From the NCBI GenBank assembly GCA_902540595.1, contig CACBNI010000002.1, forward strand, positions 62,001-126,000: a stretch of DNA of 64,000 nt. The letters are read 5' to 3'. Below the pieces are notes generated by a model. The model did no database searches. It had not been told where the DNA came from and saw only the letters and a list, made by a program, of their open reading frames with translations. Position numbers and translations under genes: made by a program. How positions within the stretch are numbered: position 1 is the first letter of the stretch; the number at the start of each line of letters is the position of its first letter. This DNA is from an uncultured Pelagibacteraceae bacterium (lineage in GTDB: Bacteria; Pseudomonadota; Alphaproteobacteria; Pelagibacterales; Pelagibacteraceae). This document shows, one piece after another, positions 2,775 to 23,923 of the stretch.

Positions 2775-3458
2775 ATGTCAGCACACGTTTTTATTGCTGA
2801 AGATGAAACACCAATAGTAACTTTATTAAAATACAACTTAGAAAAAGAGGGCCATAAGGTAAGTTTTTCTGAAAATGGAGAGGAAGCACTTAAATTAATT
2901 AAAGATAAGCAACCTGATTTAATACTTTTGGATTGGATGCTGCCAGATCTTTCTGGAGTGGATCTTTGTAAAAATTTAAAGAAGGATAAAAAATTTAGTG
3001 ATATACCAATAATAATGCTAACTGCTAAAGGCGAGGAAGCAGATAAAATTAAAGCATTTGACACAGGTGCAGACGATTATGTGACAAAACCGTTTAGTCA
3101 AAAAGAACTTAATGCTAGAATAAAATCTCTCCTAAGAAGGTCTAAACCTCAATCTTCAGTGGACGTTGTGGAATTTACTGATTTAAAAATAGATAGAGTA
3201 ACAAAACGTGTCTACAGAAATAATAAAGAAATATCCTTAGGACCAACTGAATTTAAATTATTAGATTTTTTTATTAAAAACCCTAAAAGAGTTTATTCAC
3301 GAGAACAACTTTTAAATAATGTTTGGGGTGAAAATATTTATGTAGAGTCTCGAACGGTTGATGTTCATATAAGAAGATTGAGACAAGCTATAAATATAGA
3401 AAAAACTAAACCATTAATAAGAACTGTTAGATCGGCAGGTTATTCTTTAGAGTCCTGA
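2775..3458 (+). CDS. phoB: Phosphate regulon response regulator PhoB
   Basis: OmpR/PhoB-type transcription activator of the phosphate-starvation regulon. The receiver domain (about residues 4-118) contains the acidic pair E9/D10, the phosphoacceptor Asp53 in LLDWMLPDLSG, and the conserved Thr and Lys in LTAKGEE and VTKPF. A winged-helix DNA-binding domain follows (about 130-225), with the recognition-helix motif SRTVDVHIRRLRQAI. Its likely targets lie in this same window: repeats with 11-bp period precede phnX, phnZ, the small secreted protein at 12749 and phnC. The C-terminal end overlaps the convergent sixA gene by 19 bases. Confidence 0.95.
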   Translation: MSAHVFIAEDETPIVTLLKYNLEKEGHKVSFSENGEEALKLIKDKQPDLILLDWMLPDLSGVDLCKNLKKDKKFSDIPIIMLTAKGEEADKIKAFDTGADDYVTKPFSQKELNARIKSLLRRSKPQSSVDVVEFTDLKIDRVTKRVYRNNKEISLGPTEFKLLDFFIKNPKRVYSREQLLNNVWGENIYVESRTVDVHIRRLRQAINIEKTKPLIRTVRSAGYSLES

Positions 3459-3964
3459 AGATCTTTTGGTCTAATAAACTCTTTAATTAATCCATTATTT
3501 TTTATTTCTTTCCATTCAATTAAATCAAAATTAATTTTGGCAAAGGCAGAGGTTGGAAATTTATAATTTAGTAATTTGAAATGATTATTATTTTGGTTCT
3601 TTGTTAAGGCTTTTACTAAATTTCTTACTGTAGGTTCATGGTTAATTAACAAAATAGATTTATATTTTTTTGGAATTGTTTTAATTAACTCAATAATTCT
3701 ATCTTCATTTGCTAAATAAAGTTTCTTCGATGAAAAAATTTTTCTTGGTGCAGTGATTTTTTTTAAAAGTATATTTAAAGTTTTTTTTGTTCTATTTGCA
3801 CTAGAAACTAACACATAATCAAACCTGTAATTTTTTTTAATAAAAAATTCACAAATTAATTTAGCATTGTTTTTACCCCTTTTACTTAAAGGTCTGTCAA
3901 AATCATCTAGACTGGGATCACTCCAACTGGATTTTGAGTGACGCATGACATATAAATGTAACAT
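3440..3964 (-). CDS. sixA: SixA-type histidine phosphatase (phosphoglycerate-mutase fold)
   Basis: The 174-residue protein starts MLHLYVMRHSKSSW; the RH pair is the catalytic motif of the histidine phosphatase superfamily. The region RPLSKRGKNNAK and a later INHEPTVRNLVKAL (second catalytic His) complete the active site. The short length and lack of a large insert match SixA, which removes phosphate from phosphohistidine on signalling or phosphotransfer proteins. It is convergent with phoB (19-base overlap) and divergent from ppk with only 13 bases between start codons. Its substrate here is unknown; the phosphate/polyphosphate context is suggestive only. Confidence 0.8.
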   Translation of the reverse strand: MLHLYVMRHSKSSWSDPSLDDFDRPLSKRGKNNAKLICEFFIKKNYRFDYVLVSSANRTKKTLNILLKKITAPRKIFSSKKLYLANEDRIIELIKTIPKKYKSILLINHEPTVRNLVKALTKNQNNNHFKLLNYKFPTSAFAKINFDLIEWKEIKNNGLIKEFIRPKDLQDSKE

Positions 3965-7729: not shown

Positions 7730-8221
7730 TTACTTAGTAGGCGCCTCTATAACTTTAAGAAATGATGCTATATGAGAGGCATTACAAAATTTATTTTTAA
7801 GAATTAACTTATTAATTTTATCTTTAGATAGTAAATGTATCTTAATACCTTTCTCAGATTTTCTTTTTTTAATTATATTATTTGAATAATAACAGTAGAT
7901 TTTAGTTGTTAGTCTTCCTGGCTCACAATTTATTGTGAATATTTTTTTTGGTGTACCTGATATTTTATATCCTGTCTCCTCATAAAATTCTCTACAAGCT
8001 GCACTTAAAGGATTTTCTCCTTTATCAATTATACCAGATGGAAATTCATAGGTGACTTTACTAACTGGGACTCTTTTCTGACTTACTACAACAAATTTAT
8101 CTTTTTTAATTTCACATACTATCAACGATAAATTAGCTGTTTTTAAAAAATGATAATAACTTTTTTTTTTAAATGGTTTATTAATTAGTTTTATATTGTT
8201 TGTTAAATTAATATTTTTCAT
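7730..8221 (-). CDS. Nudix hydrolase, ADP-ribose pyrophosphatase-like
   Basis: The 163-residue protein contains a full Nudix box at about residues 83-105 (GIIDKGENPLSAACREFYEE then TGY), matching GX5EX7REUXEEXGU. Such enzymes cleave nucleoside diphosphates linked to another group. The preceding YEFPSG segment resembles ADP-sugar pyrophosphatases. The preferred substrate cannot be read from sequence. It is convergent with ppx across about 100 AT-rich bases. Its upstream neighbour on the same strand is the TPR gene, 59 bases away, so the two may share a transcript. Confidence 0.85.
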   Translation of the reverse strand: MKNINLTNNIKLINKPFKKKSYYHFLKTANLSLIVCEIKKDKFVVVSQKRVPVSKVTYEFPSGIIDKGENPLSAACREFYEETGYKISGTPKKIFTINCEPGRLTTKIYCYYSNNIIKKRKSEKGIKIHLLSKDKINKLILKNKFCNASHIASFLKVIEAPTK

Positions 8222-8280: not shown

Positions 8281-8832
8281 TTAAATTATTTTTTCTGAAA
8301 TTAATTTGGAAATTCTTGGTATTAGTTCCATAGTATTGCTGTTCATTGGATTAATATATGAAGATTCAAGAAAGCTATTATATGCTTTTTCGTACTCTTT
8401 CATTTCCATATATACTTGTCCTTTCCCGATTAAAGCACCAAAATGTCTTTTTTCGAGTTTTAATACAATATCAATATCCTTTAATGCATTTTTATGTTTG
8501 CCCATTAAATACAAAGTGGTTGCTCGTCTATTCCAAGCCTCTGCCCAATTAGGGTCTTTATCAATAATTTTACTAAAAATATTGTAAGCTTTTAAATAAT
8601 TTCTATTTTGGACGAGCCTAGATCCTTCTTTTAAGTCTATTGTTAATTGGAAGTTAGTTGGATGTGTCTCCCATAATCTCCATATCTTATTTTCAAGTAT
8701 TTTAGATTGTTTTTGCGAATTACATTCCTTTAACTGAATAAAAAGTTTATTTAATTTTGTATTTGTAGTCTCAGCATTTAAACTCAAAGTTGACAATATA
8801 ATTATAAATAAAACGTAATAGTATTTTTTCAT
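8281..8832 (-). CDS. Secreted TPR-repeat protein
   Basis: The 183-residue protein has an N-terminal signal peptide (MKKYYYVLFIIILSTLSLNA, cleavage expected after residue 20). Tetratricopeptide repeats lie at about residues 78-111 and 112-145, with the typical pattern of small residues and WAEAWNRRATTLYLMGKH. It is probably a periplasmic scaffold or binding protein, and the partner is unknown. It is transcribed away from phnX; the intergenic region carries three 11-bp-period Pho half-sites oriented toward phnX. Similar small TPR proteins are common in alphaproteobacteria, so the location in the phosphorus block may be incidental. Confidence 0.8.
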   Translation of the reverse strand: MKKYYYVLFIIILSTLSLNAETTNTKLNKLFIQLKECNSQKQSKILENKIWRLWETHPTNFQLTIDLKEGSRLVQNRNYLKAYNIFSKIIDKDPNWAEAWNRRATTLYLMGKHKNALKDIDIVLKLEKRHFGALIGKGQVYMEMKEYEKAYNSFLESSYINPMNSNTMELIPRISKLISEKII

Positions 8833-8844
8833 ATGTAATAAATT

Positions 8845-8873
8845 TGTAATATTTTTGTAACATTAATGAAACA
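8845..8873 (+). promoter_or_regulatory. Candidate triple Pho-box array upstream of phnX
   Basis: Three 7-bp elements recur with an exact 11-bp period: TGTAATA (8845-8851), TGTAACA (8856-8862) and TGAAACA (8867-8873). PhoB binds 7-bp direct repeats separated by 4 bp, which is this architecture. The array points toward phnX, whose ATG lies 104 bases downstream. The same TGTAACA/TGAAACA pair occurs before phnZ. Binding by PhoB is inferred. Confidence 0.65.
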
Positions 8874-8977
8874 ATAAGAAAAATTCTATAAAGACAATAA
8901 AATAAAGAATTTCTAACAAATAAAAGGTATAAGCAACATTTGTTCTCCAAAATTAACTAATTTGATTCGAAAATTAA

Positions 8978-9772
8978 ATGAAAAATACAAAAATAGAGGC
9001 AATTGTTTTTGATCTAGCTGGCACTCTAATAGATTTTGGAAGTCAAGCACCATCTAAAGTTCTTATTCATATTTTTAATGATAATGGAATACCAATAACT
9101 AGAAAAGAAGCTATTGGTCCTATGGGCATTGAAAAAAGAGCACATATAAGTCAATTAATCTATTCAAAGAAAATAAATCTACTGTGGAAAAAAAAGTATA
9201 AAAAAAAACCCAGTAAGAATGATATAGATAAATTATTTAAACTTTTTAATCCTGAGCTTAAAAAAATTATTAAAAAACACTCTAAATTAATTACAGGAAG
9301 TATAAAAACTATTGAATTTATAAAAAATAAAAAAATTAAAATAGCTACAAATACTGGATATTCTGATGATATTTTAAAAATTATATTGTCGGAATTAAAA
9401 AAACAAAAATTTACACCAGACATTTCATATGGTTCTTCATATGCAAAAATTGGAAGACCAACAGCGGAGGTAATATACAAAATTTTTTCTGACCTAAATA
9501 TAACAAAGGGATCAAGTTGTATAAAAGTAGACGATACTATTCCTGGACTATTAGAAGGAGTAAATGCTGGAATGTGGGCAGTAGGTGTCATATTTTCAGG
9601 TAATGAATTTGGTAAAACAGAGGACGAATTTAATAAACTATCTTACAAAGATAAATCTAAATTTAGAAAAATGATCAAGAATAAATTTAAAAAAGTTGGT
9701 GCTGACTATGTAATAGATACAATAAAAGATTTACCTAAAGTAATTAAATTAATTGAGAATAGAATTAAGTAA
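8978..9772 (+). CDS. phnX: Phosphonoacetaldehyde hydrolase (phosphonatase), HAD superfamily
   Basis: Cleaves the C-P bond of phosphonoacetaldehyde to acetaldehyde and phosphate. The 264-residue protein has HAD motif I, IVFDLAGTLIDFGS, with nucleophile Asp12. The cap-domain motif PMGIEKRAHI puts Lys at residue 53, the position of the Schiff-base lysine of the Bacillus cereus enzyme. Motif III/IV regions KIGRPTAEVIYK and CIKVDDTIPGLLEGVNAGMWAVGVI also match the family. The usual Trp after the nucleophile (DWAGT) is Leu here. The partner transaminase PhnW, which makes the substrate from 2-aminoethylphosphonate, is not in the window. Three Pho half-sites lie upstream. Confidence 0.87.
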   Translation: MKNTKIEAIVFDLAGTLIDFGSQAPSKVLIHIFNDNGIPITRKEAIGPMGIEKRAHISQLIYSKKINLLWKKKYKKKPSKNDIDKLFKLFNPELKKIIKKHSKLITGSIKTIEFIKNKKIKIATNTGYSDDILKIILSELKKQKFTPDISYGSSYAKIGRPTAEVIYKIFSDLNITKGSSCIKVDDTIPGLLEGVNAGMWAVGVIFSGNEFGKTEDEFNKLSYKDKSKFRKMIKNKFKKVGADYVIDTIKDLPKVIKLIENRIK

Positions 9773-9774
9773 AA

Positions 9775-10434
9775 TCACCTATTGAAAAGCATTTTTTTAA
9801 CCACAAATATTGCTAACATTGCACCTAGTAACTCTGCAATAATAAATAAAGGTGTATTTAAATAATTGATACCAGTAAATGTGTCTGTAAAGGTTCTAGC
9901 TATAGCAACGGCAGGATTTGCAAATGAGGTTGATGAAGTAAACCAGTATCCTGCGGTAATGTAGAATCCAACACACGCAGCGGTTACAACTTTTCCACTT
10001 TTCATTGATCCAAAAATTACTAAAATTAATCCAAACGTAGCTACTATTTCTGCAACAAATATATAAATACCATCTCTAGTTTTTGATGATAATTCATATA
10101 TAGGTAATTCAAAAAAAAAATTCGCTAATCCCACACCTACAAGGCAACCTGATATTTGTGAAAAAATATAAATATGAATTAATTTAAATTTTAGTTTTCC
10201 TGTAAAAACCATACTTAAACTCACAAATGGATTAAAATGAGCTCCTGATATATCAGAAAACACTGTTATAAGAACAAATAAACCTGCTCCTGTTGCAATT
10301 GTATTTGCCAATAACATAACTGCAAAATCGTCTGTAAGATTTTGAGCCATTATACCAGAACCAACAACTATCATCACTAGGAAGCAACTACCCAAGAATT
10401 CACTATAGATTATTTTTTTTTTGCTATTTTTCAT
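9775..10434 (-). CDS. aqpS: Aquaglyceroporin of the arsenic-linked AqpS type
   Basis: Six-helix MIP-family channel of about 219 residues. The first pore box is altered (SGAHFNPF instead of NPA) and the second is FANPAVAIARTFTDTFTGI. This pair is typical of the MIP channels found next to arsC in alphaproteobacteria such as Sinorhizobium AqpS, where the channel lets arsenite leave the cell after arsenate reduction. I favour the ATG at 10434, overlapping arsC by 11 bases; an in-frame ATG at 10452 is also possible. The overlap implies cotranscription and translational coupling with arsC. No ArsB/Acr3 pump is seen nearby. Confidence 0.87.
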   Translation of the reverse strand: MKNSKKKIIYSEFLGSCFLVMIVVGSGIMAQNLTDDFAVMLLANTIATGAGLFVLITVFSDISGAHFNPFVSLSMVFTGKLKFKLIHIYIFSQISGCLVGVGLANFFFELPIYELSSKTRDGIYIFVAEIVATFGLILVIFGSMKSGKVVTAACVGFYITAGYWFTSSTSFANPAVAIARTFTDTFTGINYLNTPLFIIAELLGAMLAIFVVKKMLFNR

Positions 10435-10879
10435 AATTTTTAATCCATTCATTAATTCTAGTTTCTAGGTTAGAATAAGTTTTATGTATTTCTAGTGAAA
10501 TTAGTTCTTCTTTATTTGTTTTTTCACTATTTTCTAATTCATTAATAATATGAACAGGATCTTCAATATCCCAATGTATTATTTTTTCTGGAGATGGCCA
10601 CACTGGACAAACTTCATTACTAGCATTGTTACATACAGTAAATACCTGGTCAAATTTTGTTTTTTCATCTAAAAATTTATTGAAGTTTTTTGATGATAGA
10701 TTTTTGGTTTCAAAATTATTTTCATTAAGATACTTGATGACATATTTATTAATTATTCCAGATGGTTTGCTACCTGCACTATAACCAGCGAATTTATCTT
10801 TGTGATATTTATTAACCACACTTTCAGCTAATATGCTTCTATGAGAATTTCCTGTACAAACAAATAAAAGTTTTTTCAT
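10424..10879 (-). CDS. arsC: Arsenate reductase ArsC, low-molecular-weight phosphatase (thioredoxin) type
   Basis: Reduces arsenate to arsenite. The 151-residue protein carries the P-loop CTGNSHR (Cys8-X5-Arg14) and the downstream pair Cys83 and Cys91 in VCNNASNEVCP. These form the disulfide cascade of thioredoxin-coupled ArsC enzymes. A conserved HWDIEDP segment holds the catalytic Asp. It is followed by the overlapping MIP channel gene, a pairing known for arsenate detoxification without an ATP-driven pump. It diverges from phnZ, and the 98-bp spacer contains a Pho-box-like repeat oriented toward phnZ. Its presence amid phosphate-uptake genes fits arsenate entering through Pst. Confidence 0.9.
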   Translation of the reverse strand: MKKLLFVCTGNSHRSILAESVVNKYHKDKFAGYSAGSKPSGIINKYVIKYLNENNFETKNLSSKNFNKFLDEKTKFDQVFTVCNNASNEVCPVWPSPEKIIHWDIEDPVHIINELENSEKTNKEELISLEIHKTYSNLETRINEWIKNYEK

Positions 10880-10938
10880 TATTAACTTTTATAAATATAA
10901 ATAATTTTTGCTAGAGTTATTGATCTTTAAATCAAAAT

Positions 10939-10956
10939 TGTAACAAAACTGAAACA
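10939..10956 (+). promoter_or_regulatory. Candidate Pho box upstream of phnZ
   Basis: TGTAACA (10939-10945) and TGAAACA (10950-10956) are separated by AAAC, giving the 11-bp period of a PhoB site. The ATG of phnZ is 21 bases further on. The AT-rich stretch TAATTTAATAAATT in between could hold a -10 element, which would leave almost no leader. The two half-sites are identical to the last two before phnX. Confidence 0.65.
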
Positions 10957-10977
10957 TTAGTAATTTAATAAATTATT

Positions 10978-11529
10978 ATGCATACGATTTCTAGCATTAA
11001 TAAATTATTTAAAATTATAGAAAATATTGGGTCTGATAAACAATATGGAAATGAAAAAGTTTCACAACTTGAACATGCAATTCAATGTGGATTATTGGCA
11101 AAAAAAAATAACGAGAGTGATTTTTTCATTACTGCTGCTTTATTTCATGATATTGGCCACTTAATCATCAATGATAAAGAGGCTATAAAAAAAGGAATAG
11201 ATAAAAAACATGAAAACTCTGGATCCCTTTTTCTATCTAAATTTTTCCCTGATGATGTTACAAAATTAATAAAAGGACATGTTCCGGCTAAAAGATATTT
11301 GGTTTATTGTGAAAAAGGTTATTATGAATCTTTATCTATTGCTTCAAAACGAAGTTTAGATGTACAAGGAGGAAGTTTTTCCAAAGAGGAAGCAAACGAA
11401 TTTATTAAACAACCTTTTATGCAAGATGCAGTTAGGTTAAGAAAATATGATGATCTTGCTAAAATTGAAAATTTAGAAATTCCAAATATAAATTATTTTT
11501 ACAAACACGTAGAGAGTAGCTTTAAATAA
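10978..11529 (+). CDS. phnZ: PhnZ-type HD-domain mixed-valence diiron oxygenase
   Basis: PhnZ cleaves the C-P bond of an alpha-hydroxy phosphonate with O2, releasing phosphate. The 183-residue protein keeps the family's metal ligands: His33, His57/Asp58 (HDIGH, His61), His78, His101 in GHVPAKRYL with Lys105, and a late Asp in LRKYDD (about 158). It also keeps the Tyr23-X2-Glu26 pair, equivalent to the Tyr24/Glu27 induced-fit pair described for PhnZ. The segment SLSIASKRSLDVQGG is also PhnZ-like. The partner hydroxylase PhnY, normally adjacent, is absent from the window. It overlaps the convergent MFS gene by 8 bases. A Pho-box-like repeat sits 21 bases upstream. Confidence 0.85.
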   Translation: MHTISSINKLFKIIENIGSDKQYGNEKVSQLEHAIQCGLLAKKNNESDFFITAALFHDIGHLIINDKEAIKKGIDKKHENSGSLFLSKFFPDDVTKLIKGHVPAKRYLVYCEKGYYESLSIASKRSLDVQGGSFSKEEANEFIKQPFMQDAVRLRKYDDLAKIENLEIPNINYFYKHVESSFK

Positions 11530-12694
11530 ACTTTTTTTTGTTTAAAAAAATTGCTGTTACGTTACCAAATATTGCTAAAACAAAAAATACAAATATTAAC
11601 AAATCATATCCTCCTACATTCCATACCAACGAACCAATCCATGGACCAGCAATACTGCCAATCATATATTGTAAAGCTAAAATACCATGAATATTGCCAA
11701 AGTTTTTTTGGCCAAAAGTATCATTTTGAACCAGAGGTTTTAAAATAGCCATACTGCCATATGCTGAACTATTAAATAAAACAAATAAAAATGCTAAGTA
11801 ATGATTAATATTTATAAAGTATAAAAATATCATTCCAACTACCATCGAGTAAAAACAAATTACAAATAATTTTAAATTTGACTTATCACTTCCATATATC
11901 ATAACTAAAATTCTACCTATTACTTGTCCTGGTCCAAACAGAGATGCTGTTAATACAGCTTGGGATAGGCTCATGCCTTTTTCCTGCAACATTGGAATTA
12001 CATGAGTTGTAATAGCACCAATATTAAATCCAATAACAAACAATGAAAAACTAAATAACCAAAATCTAAAATCTTTAAGTATTATTTTAATCTTTGAATT
12101 TTGATCTGTTTTCTTTTCAATTTTTTTAAATTCTTTTAGAATTATATTTTTGAAACCAAAATAATTAGCTGGTGAACTAATCAATATATTTAATATTCCA
12201 AAAATAAATACAGTAAATCTCCAGTCATATTGTTCTGTTAAATAAGTAGCAGTAGGAAATGTGTATGTGCTTGCAAATCCAGCAAATAAAGTAATTATTG
12301 CAATAGATGTTTTAGCCTTTGATTTTAAATTAATAGTAATGACACTAAAAAGCATCGTATAAAGACAGCCACCCGAGGTTGCACTTACAAGTATCCAGGC
12401 AACTAAAAATTCAGTGTATGTGTTTGCTAAGGATAGATAGATTACACTTAATCCCAGCAATATTGGACTTACCCACATCATAGGAAAACTAAGATTTTTA
12501 TCAACAAACTTACCAAGAATGGGTAATAATAAACTATGTACAACCAAGCCTAGAGAATAAATAAAGGTTAAATTATTCCTTGAAATACTAAGTTCATTTT
12601 CCCAAGTCAGCAACAACGCTGAGAACAGATACATACAACTGCTGTAACAAAAGGTAACTGATATACCTATTAAAAATGCAGACAAATATTTCAC
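11522..12694 (-). CDS. Major facilitator superfamily transporter
   Basis: The 390-residue polytopic protein has about 12 membrane helices and the MFS inter-helix basic motif GKFVDKN after helix 2 and a GRILV segment near helix 8. The early GISVTFCYSSCMYLFSALLL segment and overall pattern resemble the oxalate/formate or monocarboxylate (OFA/MCT-like) MFS groups. The substrate is unknown. It is convergent with phnZ (8-base overlap) and diverges from the small secreted protein gene across 54 bases that include a Pho-box-like repeat. Location suggests import or export of an organic acid or phosphonate-related compound, which is inference only. Confidence 0.8.
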   Translation of the reverse strand: MKYLSAFLIGISVTFCYSSCMYLFSALLLTWENELSISRNNLTFIYSLGLVVHSLLLPILGKFVDKNLSFPMMWVSPILLGLSVIYLSLANTYTEFLVAWILVSATSGGCLYTMLFSVITINLKSKAKTSIAIITLFAGFASTYTFPTATYLTEQYDWRFTVFIFGILNILISSPANYFGFKNIILKEFKKIEKKTDQNSKIKIILKDFRFWLFSFSLFVIGFNIGAITTHVIPMLQEKGMSLSQAVLTASLFGPGQVIGRILVMIYGSDKSNLKLFVICFYSMVVGMIFLYFININHYLAFLFVLFNSSAYGSMAILKPLVQNDTFGQKNFGNIHGILALQYMIGSIAGPWIGSLVWNVGGYDLLIFVFFVLAIFGNVTAIFLNKKKFI

Positions 12695-12709
12695 AAAATT
12701 TTTTATTTC

Positions 12710-12727
12710 TTTAACATTTTTTTAACA
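12710..12727 (+). promoter_or_regulatory. Candidate Pho box upstream of the small secreted protein gene
   Basis: TTTAACA occurs twice (12710-12716 and 12721-12727) separated by TTTT, exactly 11 bp apart. It ends 21 bases before the ATG at 12749, the same distance seen for phnZ. The elements are A/T-rich, so chance similarity is more likely here than for the TGTAACA/TGAAACA pairs. Confidence 0.5.
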
Positions 12728-12748
12728 AAAGTAAGTTAATAGATTATT

Positions 12749-13171
12749 ATGAATAAAATACTTATCTCATTTATATTAACTTTATCCACAATTTCTATTA
12801 CTCAAGCTGACAATCATGCTAAAATAACAGAACAACAAGCCGGCAGTAGTTATTCACAAAATACTGAGGATACATTTAAAAATGAAATAGGGAATTGTGA
12901 AGACCCAGGCGTACTTATGTTAAGAGCCACTGTTAAAAATGATATTTCAAGATCTAGTCCCGAAAAAGCATCTGAGGCAGAAGCATTAATGAAAGAGGGC
13001 ATGAAATTGTGTAATGAAAATAGAGTTTTTGAGGCAAAACTAAAATTAGAAGACGCTAAAACAACTGCCCGTGCAGGATTGGTAGACGGAGAAGATCCAT
13101 CCGTAACTAAAATTGTTGCTGAAAATAATGAAACACCAAAGGAAGCAAAACCATGGTGGAAATTTTGGTAA
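12749..13171 (+). CDS. Small secreted protein of unknown function
   Basis: I do not recognise this 140-residue protein. It has a clear signal peptide (MNKILISFILTLSTISITQA, cleavage expected after residue 20). The mature part is acidic and helical, with two cysteines (in GNCEDP and KLCNEN) that could form a disulfide in the periplasm. The middle region (SPEKASEAEALMKEGMKLC) resembles a single TPR-like helical hairpin. It ends with the aromatic tail PWWKFW. It lies between the MFS gene and the phosphonate transporter and has a TTTAACA repeat with 11-bp spacing upstream, suggesting phosphate control. A role in phosphorus scavenging is possible but unproven. Confidence 0.8.
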   Translation: MNKILISFILTLSTISITQADNHAKITEQQAGSSYSQNTEDTFKNEIGNCEDPGVLMLRATVKNDISRSSPEKASEAEALMKEGMKLCNENRVFEAKLKLEDAKTTARAGLVDGEDPSVTKIVAENNETPKEAKPWWKFW

Positions 13172-13190
13172 AATAATTTCTAATTTTTTT

Positions 13191-14591
13191 TTATCTTACA
13201 ATTAATTGATCTGTTCCAATTAGTATTCTTCTAAGCCAAGCAGATAATCTATCCATAAATATCACAACAGCCAAAACTAATATTGCCATGTAGGCGACAT
13301 TTTCAAAATCATTTCCAGTACCTAGTGCACCTAAAAATTGTAAACCAATTCCTCCTGCGCCCATTGCACCTATTATTACGGCTCCTCTAGTATTTGACTC
13401 TAAATAGTATAAGGATTGAGATACAAAAATTGGAAGTATTTGAGGAATTATACCAAATCTATGTTGTAGAAATTTGCTAGCCCCTGTAGATTGAACTCCT
13501 TCTTGTTGTTTCTTCTCAGTATTTTCAATTGCTTCAGAATACAATTTCCCTAACGTACCTGTATCGGTAAAACCAATCGCAAAAATACCAGTGAAGGGTC
13601 CTGGACCAAAAGCTCTTAAAAATATTAAACTCCAAATTAAAAAGTCTATTCCTCTTAAAGTATCAAATAATCTTCTCAACGTAAATCTTAGAGCTTTAAT
13701 AGGTGTAACGTTGTATGCAGCAAGGAATGACAATGGCAGAGCCATTACCGTAGCAAACATTGTCCCAAGTACAGCCATAACTATTGTTTCGAGCATTGCC
13801 CACCAAACTCTACCGTGCATAAATGCTTCATTATCCTTAATCTCTGTTAAGAAAAGTTTTAAATTAGACATTTCAGGAACAACTCTTTCTTTAGAAAAAG
13901 TCAAACCTAATGCTTCGAAAAAGCTATATGGTTCTAACGGACTTGAGAAATCAAACCAAAAATATTTCCATCCAATGCTGTAACGATGAATTTCTACTTT
14001 TTTAGGATATACCTGAACTCTCTCATGTAAAGTTGGTCTAAATTCAACTCTGTTTTCTGTAATTCTAAAACCTTTTAAGTCATCTTTAGCTAAGTCTTCC
14101 GAACCTACTACGTAAGGTTTACCATTTGTGTTTAATCTTATGGTAAAATCTCTTTCGTATTTAGGGAAATTTACAATCTCAACCCTATCTTTGTATAATA
14201 TTGCTTTACCTTCATTATTAAATTCAATGACATTTCCAATATTATCAGAATTTTTATAAAACCATTCTGGAATTGATTTATCAAGATTGTCTCTTCCATA
14301 AACACTTCTATAGTTACCCTCAAAAGCTATTTTAATATCGTCAGGATTTTCCCATTTCATAGTAACATGATCTTTGTGAGCGTATGTGTCTAATACAAAC
14401 ATCGCCGCATTTTGTGGCTTCCATTTTTTTGGAATATCCACAACATCTAAAGTAAAAAAACCTATTATTAAATATATTAAAATGAGAAAGAAAACTATTT
14501 GACCTTTTATTCTACTTTTTCTAGCTTGATTGAATGTGTCAGGAAATAATTTTCGAATATTATCTCTCTCAATTGCTAAACTAGAACTCAT
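13191..14591 (-). CDS. phnE2: Phosphonate ABC transporter permease PhnE2 (long form)
   Basis: Second permease of the phosphonate importer. At 466 residues it is much longer than ordinary PhnE (about 280). A first membrane helix (about residues 27-47) is followed by a periplasmic insert of about 200 residues (50-255). The permease core then carries TMATVMALPLSFLAAYN and an EAA-like loop near GVQSTGASKFLQHRFGIIPQILP. Its start overlaps the phnE1 stop (ATGA), so it is translationally coupled and last in phnC-D-E1-E2. Long PhnE2 proteins beside a short PhnE occur in other marine alphaproteobacteria. The insert's function is unknown. Confidence 0.9.
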   Translation of the reverse strand: MSSSLAIERDNIRKLFPDTFNQARKSRIKGQIVFFLILIYLIIGFFTLDVVDIPKKWKPQNAAMFVLDTYAHKDHVTMKWENPDDIKIAFEGNYRSVYGRDNLDKSIPEWFYKNSDNIGNVIEFNNEGKAILYKDRVEIVNFPKYERDFTIRLNTNGKPYVVGSEDLAKDDLKGFRITENRVEFRPTLHERVQVYPKKVEIHRYSIGWKYFWFDFSSPLEPYSFFEALGLTFSKERVVPEMSNLKLFLTEIKDNEAFMHGRVWWAMLETIVMAVLGTMFATVMALPLSFLAAYNVTPIKALRFTLRRLFDTLRGIDFLIWSLIFLRAFGPGPFTGIFAIGFTDTGTLGKLYSEAIENTEKKQQEGVQSTGASKFLQHRFGIIPQILPIFVSQSLYYLESNTRGAVIIGAMGAGGIGLQFLGALGTGNDFENVAYMAILVLAVVIFMDRLSAWLRRILIGTDQLIVR

Positions 14592-15442
14592 TGTTTTACT
14601 CCAATTAAATTATGTCTCCAATATGCCGACAAATAATCCAATGCAATTATCGTACCAACCAACAAGAACATACATGCCAAAACATCAGCACCATAATTCC
14701 ATTGTATTAAAGCTGCTAACATTTCTCCAATTCCACCCGCACCAACAAAACCTAATATTGTAGATTCTCTAACATTAATTTCTAATCTTAAAATTCCATA
14801 ACTTAGAAAAAGAGGAAGCACTTGTGGCAGAACTGAGAACCTTATTTTTTGTGTCCAAGTCGCACCAACAGAACTTAAACCCTCAATAGGTTTTCCATCA
14901 CAATTTTCTATAGCTTCCGTGAATAATTTACCAAGTGCTCCTGCAGTATGTATTGTTATGGCAATCACTGCTGGTAAAGATGATTTACCCATCAAATATA
15001 AAAACACCATTGCTATTATTAATGTTGGAAATGATCTTGTCACATCCATAAAAAATTTTGTAAATTGAATAACTCTTTTATTTCTTATTAAATTTCTACT
15101 AGAGAAGATTGCAAAAATAACTGCCAAAACAAATCCGATCGAAGTTGAAAATAATGCAATATTTAATGTAGTAATTAATTCAGGTATGTATTTTACAACT
15201 CTTGGCCAATATTTCCATCCCATCTCAAATGTATCAATAAATAAATCTCTTGGATAATTAAAAAAATTAGCTATACCTCTACCAAAAGATCCTGCGTTTG
15301 CCTCTAACGATACCAGGGTACCACTAAAAAAAACTAATATTAAAATTGCAATACCTAATAGTGAGGATCTAGTTCTCTGGTTTGTTAATTTTTTTAAATT
15401 AACTTCAATTTGTTCTAAATTTGCTGGTAATGCTTTTGACAT
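14588..15442 (-). CDS. phnE: Phosphonate ABC transporter permease PhnE1
   Basis: Inner-membrane permease for phosphonate (or phosphate-ester/phosphite) uptake. I chose the ATG at 15442 (product starts MSKALPANLEQIEV, 284 residues) because a start at 15472 would fall inside the hairpin downstream of phnD. The core contains the BPD-type loop GLSSVGATWTQKIRFSVLPQVLPLFLSYGILRLE, nearly the same pattern as in PhnE2. Two related permeases probably form a heterodimer. It lies between phnD and phnE2, with the phnE2 start overlapping its stop. Confidence 0.92.
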   Translation of the reverse strand: MSKALPANLEQIEVNLKKLTNQRTRSSLLGIAILILVFFSGTLVSLEANAGSFGRGIANFFNYPRDLFIDTFEMGWKYWPRVVKYIPELITTLNIALFSTSIGFVLAVIFAIFSSRNLIRNKRVIQFTKFFMDVTRSFPTLIIAMVFLYLMGKSSLPAVIAITIHTAGALGKLFTEAIENCDGKPIEGLSSVGATWTQKIRFSVLPQVLPLFLSYGILRLEINVRESTILGFVGAGGIGEMLAALIQWNYGADVLACMFLLVGTIIALDYLSAYWRHNLIGVKQ

Positions 15443-15462
15443 AATATTAAAAACCAAAAAAA

Positions 15463-15495
15463 TTAGAGGCAAAGATTTTAAGTCTTTGCCTCTAA
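15463..15495 (-). terminator. Intra-operon hairpin with T-run between phnD and phnE1
   Basis: A perfect 13-bp inverted repeat has arms at 15463-15475 and 15483-15495 (TTAGAGGCAAAGA and its complement) around a 7-base loop. On the coding (minus) strand it is followed at once by a TTTTTTT run. It starts 13 bases after the phnD stop and ends 20 bases before the phnE1 ATG. This is the form of a rho-independent terminator. Inside an operon it would attenuate the permease genes or protect the phnD mRNA end, giving excess binding protein. Confidence 0.85.
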
Positions 15496-15508
15496 ATGGG
15501 GTACTTAA

Positions 15509-16459
15509 TTAATTATTTTTTTGTGCTTCAATTTTAGCTTTTCTAGCAGCTACAACCGACTCATAAAAAGAATGATCTACCGGAACCCATTTTTTAACAA
15601 TACCGTTTGCAACGTTTTCGCTGCACTTCGGATCGTTTTCGTGTATCCATTGTTTCATTCCAATCATTACTTGATGTGCTCTAACAGGTAAAAAAGTAGG
15701 CATCACAATTGGACCATTAGGAATTAGTTTTGAAGACCAAATTTGAACAATGTCGTCCATATTTAAAATCCCTTTATCAACCATTTTTCTTAAATTCCCT
15801 GACGAATATCCTTCTTCCCAGCTACCAACACCAGATACCCATGTTACACCAGCATCAACATCACCATTCATTACCGCTAATACATTGTTTTCATGCCCAC
15901 CAGAAAATTGTGTTTTTGAAAAATATGTATCTGGGTCCATACCCATAGCCTTTAATTCAATTGACGGAATTAAAAAACCTGATGTAGAGTTAGGGTCAGC
16001 CCAACCAAAGGATTTACCTTTAAGGTCTGCCATTGATTTAATTCCAGATGATTTAGTTGCTACTGCAACAGAGTAGTAACCCATATCACCAGTTGGCTGC
16101 ATTCTTGTTAGTACTGGTACTACTGCAGTTGGATCTTTTAAATACATACCTGCGTATCCTGAAGAACCGAACCAAGTGTAATCTAGATTACCACCTAGCA
16201 TCGACTCCATTGTTCCAGCGTAGTCTTTAAAAGTAAAAAATTTAGCTGGTACACCATAAGCGGCTTCTATATACGGCATGAAACATTCATTTCTAGCTAT
16301 AATATCTTGTGCTGCTTCGTCACCTAAAAAACCAACTCTAAACTCTGGTTGGTATTTACTTAAGTCCATTTTTGGGCCCGTGTAAGTTACCGCATTAGCT
16401 TGAGCTGAAAAAAACACCATAGCTAAAAGTGCAATAACTCTTGTTAGTTTATTAAACAT
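15509..16459 (-). CDS. phnD: Phosphonate ABC transporter substrate-binding protein PhnD
   Basis: Periplasmic binding protein that delivers phosphonates to PhnE/PhnC. The 316-residue protein has a signal peptide (about residues 1-23, ending AQANA). A type-II binding-protein fold of the PhnD/SsuA group follows, with FRVGFLGDEAAQDI, DYTWFGSSGYAGMYL and the phosphonate-site-like segment GWADPNSTSGFLIPS. A good ribosome site (AAGGAGA) precedes the ATG. It follows phnC by 66 bases and is followed by a strong hairpin. The exact ligand (methylphosphonate, 2-aminoethylphosphonate or other) cannot be read from sequence. Confidence 0.94.
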   Translation of the reverse strand: MFNKLTRVIALLAMVFFSAQANAVTYTGPKMDLSKYQPEFRVGFLGDEAAQDIIARNECFMPYIEAAYGVPAKFFTFKDYAGTMESMLGGNLDYTWFGSSGYAGMYLKDPTAVVPVLTRMQPTGDMGYYSVAVATKSSGIKSMADLKGKSFGWADPNSTSGFLIPSIELKAMGMDPDTYFSKTQFSGGHENNVLAVMNGDVDAGVTWVSGVGSWEEGYSSGNLRKMVDKGILNMDDIVQIWSSKLIPNGPIVMPTFLPVRAHQVMIGMKQWIHENDPKCSENVANGIVKKWVPVDHSFYESVVAARKAKIEAQKNN

Positions 16460-16525
16460 AATTGTCTCCTTTTTATAATTTTAGTCTCTCGACTTATTTG
16501 TATTTGTAACGATGAGTTATTGATC

Positions 16526-17350
16526 TCATGCAGTTGCAAATTCTTTCTCAACATCTCCATTTATCTTTTTTTTTGTTTTAAGCTCAGTGGATGTTACTTG
16601 TGGTTCAAAAGCTTCATCAGCTTCTGCACCATAAATTTCTCTTGCAAGTATGTCTGACAATTTTTCTGGCAAATCATCAAAGACAATTGCGCCATCTTTC
16701 ATTCCAATAATACGGTCACAATAGGTTTTTGCTGTATCTAGGGTATGAAGATTTGAAATGACCGTTAAATTTTTTTCATCATGAATTTTTCTTAATGACT
16801 CCATTACCATTCTTGCATTCATTGGGTCTAAAGATGCTATAGGTTCATCTGCCAAAATCATTTTAGGATTTTGCATTAATGCTCTGCATATAGCTACACG
16901 TTGTTGTTGACCACCAGATAAAGTTTCTGCTCTTTGAAGTGCAGTATTGGCCATACCAAGGGTGTTAAGCAAAATTAAAGCATCAGCTCTCTCATCTCGA
17001 GAAAACATTTTTAATGATGCTCTAAATGATCCTTGGTAATTTAATCTACCTAAAATGACATTTGTTAATACATCAAGTCTCGGTACTAAGTTAAATTGCT
17101 GAAAAATCATTGCACAATTTCTCTGCCATGATCTTTTTTCTTTGCTTTTTAGTTGTAATATATTTTGACCATTGATTTCTACTTCTCCATCTGTTGCATC
17201 AGTGAGTCGATTTATGATCCTGAGAAGAGTGGATTTACCTGCACCTGATCTTCCAATAATTCCTATCATTTGAGGTTTATTGACCTCAAAAGAAACATTT
17301 TTAACAGCGTGATTATTACCAAAGAATTTATTTAGTTTGCTTATTCGCAT
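16526..17350 (-). CDS. phnC: Phosphonate ABC transporter ATP-binding protein PhnC
   Basis: ATPase of the phosphonate importer. The 274-residue protein shows Walker A (GRSGAGKST), the signature motif LSGGQQQR, Walker B (MILADEP) and the PhnC-type stretch [23 protein letters not shown]. It is the first gene of phnC-D-E1-E2 on the minus strand, 119 bases downstream of the phnF stop. That gap holds an array of Pho-box-like half-sites, suggesting direct phosphate-starvation control independent of phnF. Confidence 0.95.
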
Positions 17351-17381
17351 ACCTGTTTATGCACCTCATTTTTTGAGAAAA

Positions 17382-17432
17382 TGTTAAAATTTTGTTAATA
17401 AAATTTATAAGTTTTGTTTAGTAAATGTTAAA
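17382..17432 (-). promoter_or_regulatory. Candidate Pho-box array upstream of phnC
   Basis: On the plus strand the elements TGTTAAA (17382-17388), TGTTAAT (17393-17399), TTTATAA (17404-17410, weak), TGTTTAG (17415-17421) and TGTTAAA (17426-17432) lie in strict 11-bp phase. Read toward phnC the two nearest are ATTAACA and TTTAACA, ending 31 bases before the phnC ATG. Tandem 11-bp repeats are the PhoB binding pattern. The AT-richness of the genome weakens the statistical case for the middle element. Confidence 0.55.
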
Positions 17433-17469: not shown

Positions 17470-18180
17470 CTAAACTTTAACAAGTATCTGAATTTTAGAC
17501 CCGTCAAAATAACTTTCACTAAGCTCTATTGGTTTTTTGTTGAAGTCAACATTAATGGATGTTGTTTTAATTAAAGGTTTTCCAACATCAATATTTAAAA
17601 AATTTGATTTTATTTTGTCTGAAATTTCTGCGTTTATTAACGTTTTAGATCTTATTATTTTTTTAACATTTAATAAATTAAATGTTTTAGTTACAGACTG
17701 TTTTTTAACAAAATGATTAATAAATTTTGGAAATCTTTTATGTGGTATAGATCTAAATGTTATCACTGAAGGAGAGTTATTTATATAACCAATACTATTT
17801 ATTCTAGTTACTTTTTCATTTTTTTTTAAATCCAACTCTTTTTTTTCAAATAAATTGCATTCTGCAATATCAAAACTCTTAATTTCAATTCGTGCTGATT
17901 TGTTTTCTTCAAGAATATTTTCAGTAAAACGAACATTTTTACTTATTGAATAACTAATTTTTGATGATTTAACAAAAACACCCAAACCTCTTTTTGAATA
18001 TATTAAATTATCATTTTTAAGTTCTTTAAAAGCTCTTCTTATCGTGTGTCTATTTACATTAAATTGTTTTGCATAGTCACCTTCGGAGTCTAATTTTTTA
18101 TTAATTTTGTACTTGTTTAAAACAATTTCTCTTTTGATTGAATTGTATATTTCTTTCCAAAGCAAATCTTTTGTTGTCAT
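17470..18180 (-). CDS. phnF: GntR-family phosphonate regulator PhnF
   Basis: The 236-residue protein has an N-terminal GntR winged helix (about residues 5-72, with YAKQFNVNRHTIRRAFKELKNDNLIYSKRGLGVFV). A UTRA ligand-binding domain of the HutC/PhnF subfamily follows (about 90-236, ending ELSESYFDGSKIQILV). Such proteins usually repress phosphonate operons until a ligand is present. It is divergent from phnG with 66 bases between the start codons and precedes phnC on its own strand. A pair of TTGTNTAG repeats next to the phnG start is a possible operator. Confidence 0.87.
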   Translation of the reverse strand: MTTKDLLWKEIYNSIKREIVLNKYKINKKLDSEGDYAKQFNVNRHTIRRAFKELKNDNLIYSKRGLGVFVKSSKISYSISKNVRFTENILEENKSARIEIKSFDIAECNLFEKKELDLKKNEKVTRINSIGYINNSPSVITFRSIPHKRFPKFINHFVKKQSVTKTFNLLNVKKIIRSKTLINAEISDKIKSNFLNIDVGKPLIKTTSINVDFNKKPIELSESYFDGSKIQILVKV

Positions 18181-18227
18181 AAAATTTTAATAAATAATTT
18201 ATTGAAATTTTTTTTAATTTTGTTACT

Positions 18228-18243
18228 TGTCTAGTTGTATAGT
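18228..18243 (+). promoter_or_regulatory. Candidate PhnF operator / phnG promoter element
   Basis: Two 8-bp direct repeats, TTGTCTAG (18228-18235) and TTGTATAG (18236-18243), abut each other 3 bases before the phnG ATG at 18247. HutC-subfamily GntR regulators recognise TTGTATA-like half-sites, and phnF is divergently encoded. TATAGT within the second repeat could also act as a -10 box, leaving almost no leader. This is a pattern-based guess. Confidence 0.35.
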
Positions 18244-18246
18244 ATT

Positions 18247-18690
18247 ATGCAATATGAATCAAGAGAACAATGGTTAAGTTATTTAGCAACAGCAGATGAA
18301 AATTATCTCATTTCGCTTTGGGACAATTTAAATATGAAAATAGAATATAATTGGTTAAGAGAACCTGAGATTGGCAGTATTATGGTTCAAGGAAAAGCAG
18401 GCGCCACAGGTGATAATTTTAATGTTGGAGAAGTAACTATAACGAGATGTTCATTAAATTTAGATAAAAAAATTCAAGGACATGGTTATGTTCAAGGTAG
18501 AAATAAATATAAATCCAAAATTGCAGCTTTGTGTGATGCATTGATGCAAACTGAAAAAAAAAAAATAATTAAAAGAAATATAATAGATAAATTAATTAAA
18601 TATAAAAATAACAAAAGAAATGAAATATTATCTAAAACAGAAGCTACTAAGGTTGATTTTTTTACCTTGGTAAGAGGTGAGGATAAATAA
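18247..18690 (+). CDS. phnG: C-P lyase core subunit PhnG
   Basis: Component of the PhnGHIJ C-P lyase core complex, acting with PhnI to form the ribose-1-alkylphosphonate triphosphate intermediate. The 147-residue protein contains the family patterns ESREQWLSYLATA, NWLREPEIGSIMVQGKAGATG and FNVGEVTITRCSLNL, then GHGYVQGRNKYKSKIAALCDALMQ. The ATG at 18247 is preferred over a TTG at 18235, because it matches the usual PhnG length and the TTG lies in the putative operator. It is the first gene of the operon; phnH follows 3 bases later. Confidence 0.94.
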   Translation: MQYESREQWLSYLATADENYLISLWDNLNMKIEYNWLREPEIGSIMVQGKAGATGDNFNVGEVTITRCSLNLDKKIQGHGYVQGRNKYKSKIAALCDALMQTEKKKIIKRNIIDKLIKYKNNKRNEILSKTEATKVDFFTLVRGEDK

Positions 18691-23905: not shown

Positions 23906-23923
23906 TTTAAAATATTTGTAACA
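23906..23923 (+). promoter_or_regulatory. Weak candidate Pho box upstream of phnM
   Basis: TGTAACA (23917-23923) is preceded 11 bp upstream by the imperfect element TTTAAAA (23906-23912). It ends 21 bases before the phnM ATG, the same spacing as for phnZ and the gene at 12749. The first half is poor, so confidence is low. phnM needs its own promoter because the gene before it is on the other strand. Confidence 0.35.

What the first reader, a model, noticed from the sequence alone, without database searches (positions are those of the whole stretch)
8845..17432. A local PhoB regulon marked by repeats of exact 11-bp period at four promoters
TGTAACA/TGAAACA-type elements with 4-bp spacers occur before phnX (three in phase), phnZ (two), the secreted protein at 12749 (two) and phnC (up to five), all oriented toward the gene. 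The spacing to the ATG is 21, 21 and 31 bases at three of them. PhoB is known to bind 7-bp direct repeats separated by 4 bp, and phoB is in the same block. The SAR11-type half-site appears to be T(G/T)(T/A)AACA rather than the E. coli CTGTCAT; that consensus is inferred.
Basis: partly seen in the sequence, partly recalled or inferred. Interest (0 to 1): 0.75.

Follow-up and report, generated by a model that had tools for sequence, protein, structure and literature searches.

The report
SAR11 phosphate-starvation (PhoB) promoter elements
A cluster of phosphorus-scavenging genes in an ocean SAR11 bacterium carries matching, evolutionarily conserved DNA tags at several promoters, almost certainly the docking sites of the phosphate-starvation switch PhoB: a real, well-conserved but ordinary kind of gene control.

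Summary
Confirmed and extended. The motif recurs at pstS, olsBA and plcP just outside the window. In related SAR11 single-cell genomes the boxes recur (phnZ 38/38, secreted protein 38/38, phnG 36/36, phnM 33/33, phnX 13/13; reversed controls 0), and half-site columns vary far less than flanks (12/113 vs 165/397). The half-site, T[G/T]T[A>C]A[C/T]A, is a drifted E. coli PhoB half-site: orthologous sites read TGTAATA in one genome, TGTCATA in another. PhoB's recognition helix equals E. coli's; no CtrA-level match was found. This is a Pho regulon with a lineage-specific Pho box: a new member of a known kind. Binding and induction were not tested.

The parts
8834..8873 (+). Pho box of phnX: four in-phase half-sites (three 18-bp pairs at 8834, 8845, 8856); 104 nt before the ATG
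   Evidence: 13/13 named loci with phnX at >=60% identity; first three units show 0 variable columns in 12 distinct sequences
8978..9772 (+). phnX, phosphonoacetaldehyde hydrolase
   Evidence: TIGR01422 272.9 bits, cut-off 220
10939..10956 (+). Pho box of phnZ-like gene, two half-sites, 21 nt before the ATG
   Evidence: 38/38 named loci at >=60% identity, spacing 21 in 37 and 20 in 1
10978..11529 (+). phnZ-like HD-domain oxygenase
   Evidence: TIGR03276 200.1 bits, below its cut-off of 214.6; PF01966
12710..12727 (+). Pho box of the small secreted-protein gene, two half-sites, 21 nt before the ATG
   Evidence: 38/38 named loci at >=60% identity, spacing 21 in each
12749..13171 (+). small secreted protein (signal-peptide-like start by eye), companion of phnCDE; no family match; helical core predicted
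   Evidence: no Pfam or NCBIfam hit; in 19 of 101 genomes searched, own included; AlphaFold2 mean pLDDT 65.6, residues 51-110 about 90
17382..17432 (-). Pho box array of phnC: five registers of 11 bp, 31 nt before the ATG
   Evidence: 8/35 half-site columns variable vs 9/16 spacer and 37/68 flank in 23 distinct relatives
16526..17350 (-). phnC, phosphonate ABC transporter ATPase; phnD and two permease genes follow
   Evidence: TIGR02315 317.3 bits, cut-off 266.1; neighbours by Pfam
18175..18192 (+).
   Evidence: matrix 15.1; identical in 36/36 named loci at >=60% identity, and >=11 in 28 of 30 more distant ones
18247..18690 (+). phnG, first of the C-P lyase genes
   Evidence: PF06754, then PhnH, PhnI, PhnJ
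23906..23923 (+).
   Evidence: matrix 12.1; identical in 33/33 named loci at >=60% identity; PhnM by TIGR02318 410.5 vs 390.55
   Evidence: matrix 15.7, PF20189; box in only 16/32 relatives
2775..3458 (+). phoB, response regulator
   Evidence: TIGR02154 331.0 bits, cut-off 296.2; recognition helix RTVDVHIRRLR identical to E. coli PhoB 1gxp

Best explanation
These are PhoB operators (Pho boxes) of a SAR11 (Pelagibacteraceae) Pho regulon. When Pi is scarce, PhoR phosphorylates PhoB; PhoB dimers bind head-to-tail on the 7-bp half-sites spaced by 4 bp, in place of a -35 element, recruit RNA polymerase and switch on phosphonate uptake (phnCDE), phosphonate breakdown (phnX, phnZ, C-P lyase phnG..., phnM), a small secreted protein and, outside the window, pstS, olsBA and plcP. 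The half-site T[G/T]T[A>C]A[C/T]A is an A+T-shifted form of the E. coli half-site CTGTCAT(A). At phnZ and the secreted-protein gene the ATG lies where an E. coli-like PhoB promoter would start transcription, so those mRNAs may be leaderless. Shown: sequence, position, orientation, conservation, gene families, presence of PhoB. Inferred: PhoB binding, activation, -10 position, transcription starts.
For: Matrix from other genomes' pstS promoters puts six P-related starts on top of 76 scored ORF starts in the window (12.1 to 18.6; seventh is ppk at 11.2, then 8.9). Boxes at phnZ 38/38, secreted protein 38/38, phnG 36/36, phnM 33/33, phnX 13/13, phnC 59/74 of the named loci with >=60% identity, reversed sequence 0; in unnamed relatives pstS 28/28, plcP 29/29, phnC 18/18, secreted protein 19/19, own included, reversed 0. 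Half-site columns 12/113 variable vs flanks 165/397, Fisher p = 7e-11. Own-genome looser pattern: 13 of 30 located hits lie between genes within 130 nt of a same-strand start, vs 1 of 20 for the reversed pattern, that one inside the olsB array. TGTCATA and TGTAATA/TGTAACA interchange at orthologous sites (pstS: L055 vs L049/L052; phnC of the sister family: L100/L101 vs L099/L102). PhoB recognition helix same as E. coli and near-invariant in 30 PhoB sequences, own included. C-P lyase of HTCC7211 is reported as induced by P starvation (PMC6426599, passage).
Against: No binding or expression data for this genome. Loose patterns are not enriched. No -10 spacing stands out. DUF6552 has the box in only 16/32 relatives. 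The phnX box lies about 104 nt from the ATG with no obvious -10. The phnG half-site TGTCATA contains the phnF start codon, so its conservation there is partly for another reason. The loci share a nearly identical PhnD, so they are not independent events (9-15 distinct upstream sequences per promoter, 23 for phnC).
Confidence: 0.92

Rival explanations
1. The repeats are sites of another OmpR-family regulator, above all CtrA, whose alphaproteobacterial motif TTAA-N7-TTAA (recalled) has the same 11-bp period and is contained in TTTAACA-N4-TTTAACA.
For: The secreted-protein box and parts of the phnC array fit TTAA-N7-TTAA by reading.
Against: The genome has four OmpR-type DNA-binding domains; none reaches the cut-off of 350 of the one CtrA model that turned up (a Rhodobacter-type model): PhoB 136.9, two others 115.5 and 26.4, the fourth not among the 25 rows shown of 76, so under 94.2. 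phnX, phnZ and phnG boxes lack the TTAA pair; TGTCATA variants occupy orthologous positions; the strong targets are P-stress genes. Caveat: the genome is 87.75% complete.
Confidence: 0.04
2. The phosphonate genes are controlled mainly by the local GntR/PhnF-type repressor (17470-18180), and the repeats are secondary.
For: phnF lies between phnC and phnG (TIGR02325 145.3 bits, just under its cut-off of 156.8); an invariant stretch with a tandem TTGTCTAG-TTGTATAG (18227-18242) sits between the phnG box and its ATG.
Against: It does not explain the same boxes at pstS, olsB and plcP, or their conservation; GntR sites are usually inverted repeats (recalled). Dual control is possible.
Confidence: 0.15
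3. Chance repeats in A+T-rich intergenic DNA.
For: Loose patterns occur at background frequency (56 vs 52; 21 vs 23 at >=9).
Against: Strict matches exceed background, sit upstream of P genes in the right orientation and are conserved against diverging flanks.
Confidence: 0.01

Closest known systems
Escherichia coli Pho box / PhoB regulon
   Same: 7-bp half-sites plus 4-bp spacers, 11-nt direct-repeat units (PMC4415409, passages); pst and phn genes as targets; same PhoB recognition helix
   Different: Half-site T[G/T]T[A>C]A[C/T]A instead of CTGTCAT; regulon also covers plcP and olsBA; -10 spacing not established
Pho boxes predicted at plcP gene clusters of marine bacteria (PMC4796936; passages read)
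   Same: Predicted PhoB sites upstream of lipid-remodelling genes; the study includes SAR11 HTCC7211
   Different: The passages read show no SAR11 consensus and do not deal with phosphonate promoters; supplements could not be read here
PhoP boxes of Bacillus and Pho boxes of cyanobacteria (consensus recalled, not from a call)
   Same: TTAACA/TTTACA-like repeats with about 11-bp period
   Different: Different phyla and regulators; the resemblance is probably convergent A+T drift (inference)
CtrA box of alphaproteobacteria (recalled)
   Same: 11-bp period, TTAA cores
   Different: No protein at the CtrA cut-off in the genome; TGT(C/A)ATA forms do not fit

Membership tests
PhoB regulon / Pho box | Two or more 7-bp direct repeats separated by 4 bp (11-bp period) | tested here: met
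PhoB regulon / Pho box | Upstream of and pointing at Pi-starvation genes, including pstS | tested here: met
PhoB regulon / Pho box | A PhoB orthologue in the genome | tested here: met
   TIGR02154 331.0 vs 296.2; ABC-permease and ATPase genes and phoU beside it, histidine kinase and PstS-type protein upstream
PhoB regulon / Pho box | E. coli half-site CTGTCAT | tested here: not met
   In this window only the phnG box has TGTCATA, and there it holds the phnF start codon; elsewhere A at position 4 and C/T at position 6. Not taken as disqualifying: the consensus differs between species (PMC4415409, passage) and TGTCATA occurs at orthologous non-coding sites
PhoB regulon / Pho box | Box replaces the -35, with a -10 about 10 bp downstream (recalled) | tested here: inconclusive
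   No spacing gives a clear -10 over ten own-genome promoters
PhoB regulon / Pho box | PhoB~P binds the site | not testable with these tools
   needs gel shift or footprinting
PhoB regulon / Pho box | Genes induced by Pi starvation | not testable with these tools
   Published statements for HTCC7211 C-P lyase and ArsC (PMC6426599, passages); not for this genome
CtrA regulon | A CtrA orthologue | tested here: not met
   four OmpR-type domains, none at the CtrA model's cut-off; genome 87.75% complete
PhnF (GntR) operators | Inverted-repeat operators at the phn promoters (recalled) | not tested
   a conserved TTGTMTAG tandem at phnG was noted only

The most novel reading that the evidence does not exclude
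In SAR11 the PhoB operator and the start codon are locked together. At phnZ and the secreted-protein gene the ATG stays 21 nt from the last half-site (37/38 and 38/38 named loci), about where PhoB-dependent transcription should start, so Pi starvation would produce leaderless mRNAs. The half-site has also drifted to TGTAACA although PhoB's recognition helix is unchanged from E. coli, which would mean the readout has shifted towards DNA shape or a relaxed fourth base.
Probability: 0.4. Interest if true: 0.5.

Novelty: new member of a known kind. Interest (0 to 1): 0.36.

Why it matters
SAR11 is among the most abundant bacterial groups in the ocean and has few regulators. A Pho-box matrix that works across its genomes lets the phosphate regulon, including genes for phosphonate use and lipid replacement, be read from single-cell genomes and metagenomes, and nominates new members: the small secreted protein and, less surely, the DUF6552 ORF.

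Tried and rejected
Reader-type pattern with one mismatch: 56 hits vs 52 reversed, not informative. Matrix at >=9: 21 vs 23 reversed. Period scan: period 11 is not unique at >=11 (14, vs 12 at period 9), only at >=13. A fixed -10 spacing: not found. ppk as a further member: weak site (11.2); the near-ATG site scores 11.6 in this genome, and in the 14 relatives listed the best site is the farther one, 124 nt upstream (8.7 to 12.1), where the neighbouring gene lies in this genome; not claimed. Three exact-pattern hits upstream of other genes (pentapeptide repeat, GYD, DUF1800) were not followed. Strict hits inside genes (C4:24476, C2:52752, C3:91288, C17:14819) are read as chance.

Rows dropped before counts; loci under 60% identity were left out of the box counts (phnZ 20 of 58, secreted protein 34 of 72, phnG 30 of 66, phnM 13 of 46, phnX 19 of 32, DUF6552 1 of 33, phnC 0 of 74), as were loci with under 100 nt of upstream sequence. 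Scored afterwards, the dropped rows have a box >=11 in 0/20, 18/34, 28/30, 9/13, 0/19 and 0/1; rows under 70% (phnC under 90%) and duplicate upstream sequences were dropped; most of the first phnG half-site lies in phnF and was left out (8 of 14 columns used); 30 of the 31 hits had a locus to classify; the script called the plcP site 'coding' because of an upstream TTG start of the divergent DAGK-like ORF, and it is not counted among the 13. One search scored 33 gene starts that I had picked by hand (34 listed, 1 too near the window end); one search repeats it on 76 of the 78 ORFs of at least 80 aa (the 79-aa DUF6552 ORF falls under that limit; two ORFs lie too near the window ends). One search used ten own-genome promoters only.

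Literature: the searches showed, in their listings and in the passages that I read, no SAR11 Pho-box consensus; I did not read the listed papers whole, supplements could not be read, and the two Carini papers (2014, 2015) are known to me only as cited in PMC6426599 and from memory. Passages only were read of PMC4796936, PMC6852614, PMC4415409, PMC6426599, PMC12421899 and PMC3348028.
Full report
What was asked. The window is G000:C2:62001-126000 of a 1.207 Mb, 37-contig, 87.75% complete genome. PhnD from the window has matches at 100% identity (as rounded) in Pelagibacteraceae single-cell genomes, so this is SAR11.

The repeats are at 8834-8873 (phnX, four units), 10939-10956 (phnZ), 12710-12727 (secreted protein) and 17382-17432 minus (phnC, five registers), all pointing at the gene. 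Distances to the ATG are 104, 21, 21 and 31.

A test that avoids circularity. I took 30 half-sites from ten distinct pstS promoters of other genomes, own genome excluded. The matrix gives T(25/30) G/T(16/14) T(30) A(23; C 4, T 3) A(30) C/T(13/17) A(26). Among 76 scored ORF starts of at least 80 aa in the window the six best upstream scores (12.1 to 18.6) are phnX, secreted protein, phnG, phnZ, phnC and phnM; next are ppk at 11.2 and another at 8.9; reversed upstream sequence reaches 11 once. In a hand-picked set of 33 starts that includes the 79-aa DUF6552 ORF, that ORF scores 15.7 and the top seven are these. In the whole window, both strands, 8 pairs score >=13 against a mean of 1.27 and a maximum of 6 in 200 first-order Markov sequences, and 5 score >=15 against 0.30, maximum 3. 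At loose thresholds there is no excess; the claim rests on strict matches, position and conservation.

Genome-wide. The strict pattern TKTMAYANNNNTKTMAYA has 14 exact hits in the genome against 5 for the reversed pattern. Eight of the 14 are at plcP, pstS (2), phnX (2), secreted protein, phnG and DUF6552. Of the other six, one (C13:86) lies 48 nt before a DUF1800 gene; C4:24476, C2:52752, C3:91288 and C17:14819 lie inside ORFs, and C3:60038 where two ORFs overlap. With the looser TKWAAYA pattern there are 31 hits vs 20 reversed; 13 of the 30 with a locus lie between genes within 130 nt of a same-strand start, against 1 of 20 reversed hits, that one inside the olsB array. This scan adds olsBA (three units at C2:57546-57574 minus) and plcP (C2:54034); their products were assigned by Pfam and, for OlsB, by sub-cut-off NCBIfam rows, and the plcP name rests on the metallophosphoesterase-glycosyltransferase pair, as in PMC4796936.

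Conservation. In 78 named loci fetched with PhnD, the box scores >=11 at phnZ 38/38, secreted protein 38/38, phnG 36/36, phnM 33/33, phnX 13/13, phnC 59/74 and DUF6552 16/32 of the loci with at least 60% identity to the query; reversed upstream sequence gives 0 at each gene, and the opposite strand gives 2, both at phnX. In loci under 60% it is 28/30 at phnG, 18/34 at the secreted protein and 9/13 at phnM, but 0/20 at phnZ, 0/19 at phnX and 0/1 at DUF6552. In unnamed relatives, own included, it is 28/28 at pstS, 29/29 at plcP, 18/18 at phnC and 19/19 at the secreted protein, but 2/28 at phnZ and 4/20 at phnX, where most rows are distant homologues. Against the flanks, 12 of 113 half-site columns vary versus 165 of 397 (Fisher p = 7e-11). 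At phnC each of the five registers is constrained (8/35 columns variable in all) while the spacers between them are not (9/16). The loci are not independent (PhnD is 96-100% identical in the SAR11 group nearest the window); 9 to 15 distinct upstream sequences per promoter, 23 for phnC, carry the test. The box-to-ATG distance of 21 is kept at the secreted protein in 38/38 and at phnZ in 37/38. One caution: the TGTCATA half-site at phnG contains the complement of the phnF start codon (18178-18180), so its sequence is constrained twice.

Link to the E. coli box. At orthologous places the SAR11-type and E. coli-type half-sites interchange: pstS of L055 has TGTCATAAAAC where L049 and L052 have TGTAACAAAAC; phnC of L100 and L101 has CTGTCATAAAA where L099 and L102 have CTGTAATAAAA. 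The E. coli consensus CTGTCAT and the 11-nt unit definition are from PMC4415409 (passages). PhoB's recognition helix RTVDVHIRRLR is identical to that of E. coli PhoB 1gxp; in 30 PhoB sequences, own included, it is the same up to V/I, with one I-T-R variant and one sequence cut off by its contig end. So the shift in consensus is not explained by a changed helix.

Rivals. CtrA's recalled motif has the same period, but none of the four OmpR-type domains in the genome reaches the cut-off of the CtrA model seen, and the target set is P-stress genes. PhnF may add substrate control at phnC and phnG; an invariant tandem TTGTCTAG-TTGTATAG (18227-18242) lies between the phnG box and its ATG. Chance is excluded for the strong sites.

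Mechanism. Most likely PhoB~P dimers bind the repeats and recruit RNA polymerase in place of a -35 contact. The -10 could not be placed. At phnZ and the secreted-protein gene the ATG is 21 nt from the box, where an E. coli-like PhoB promoter would start (spacing recalled), so leaderless mRNAs are a prediction, not a result. Published support for Pi control of phn genes in SAR11 is a statement that HTCC7211 C-P lyase is induced by P starvation and that ArsC rises 2.3-fold (PMC6426599, passages). Pho boxes at plcP clusters of marine bacteria, in a study that includes SAR11, were predicted earlier (PMC4796936, passages).

Verdict.

Noticed in passing
9775-10879 and 11522-12694: An ArsC-type arsenate reductase with an adjacent aquaporin-type channel, the pair reported for SAR11 in PMC6426599, plus an MFS protein whose best NCBIfam row is the arsenite exporter ArsK (132.7 bits, cut-off 400), interleaved with the phosphonate genes.
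   Followed up: partly
18227-18242: A tandem TTGTCTAG-TTGTATAG between the phnG Pho box and its ATG is invariant in 11 distinct upstream sequences; possible PhnF operator.
   Followed up: no
L031 about 8072-8095 (plcP leader), 11514-11533 (olsB start), 13480 (pstS leader): The 8-mer AAAGATTC follows the Pho boxes of pstS, olsB and plcP; at olsB and plcP it belongs to an inverted repeat (GAATCTTT-TATC-AAAGATTC; GATTCTA-N7-TAGAATC). It also occurs at two other places in L031 and two in the window, none at a phn promoter. Unexplained.
   Followed up: partly
12749-13171: The small secreted protein has no family match, yet 18 of the 19 genomes that have it (own included) also have phnC, and it has faint homologues beside phnC in SAR116 loci (L303, L305, 27-28% identity); predicted helical core.
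   Followed up: partly
8281-8873: The phnX box begins 2 nt from the start codon of the divergent TPR gene (8281-8832 minus), so PhoB bound there may also affect that gene.
   Followed up: no
18175-18180: The first half-site of the phnG box overlaps the first two codons of phnF, so PhoB binding could also act on phnF.
   Followed up: no
3836-3963: Weak Pho-box-like pairs before ppk (scores 11.2 and 11.6); not convincingly conserved at the near position in relatives.
   Followed up: yes
G000:C13:86-103 (L196): An exact Pho-box pair 48 nt before a DUF1800 gene at a contig end; possible further regulon member.
   Followed up: no
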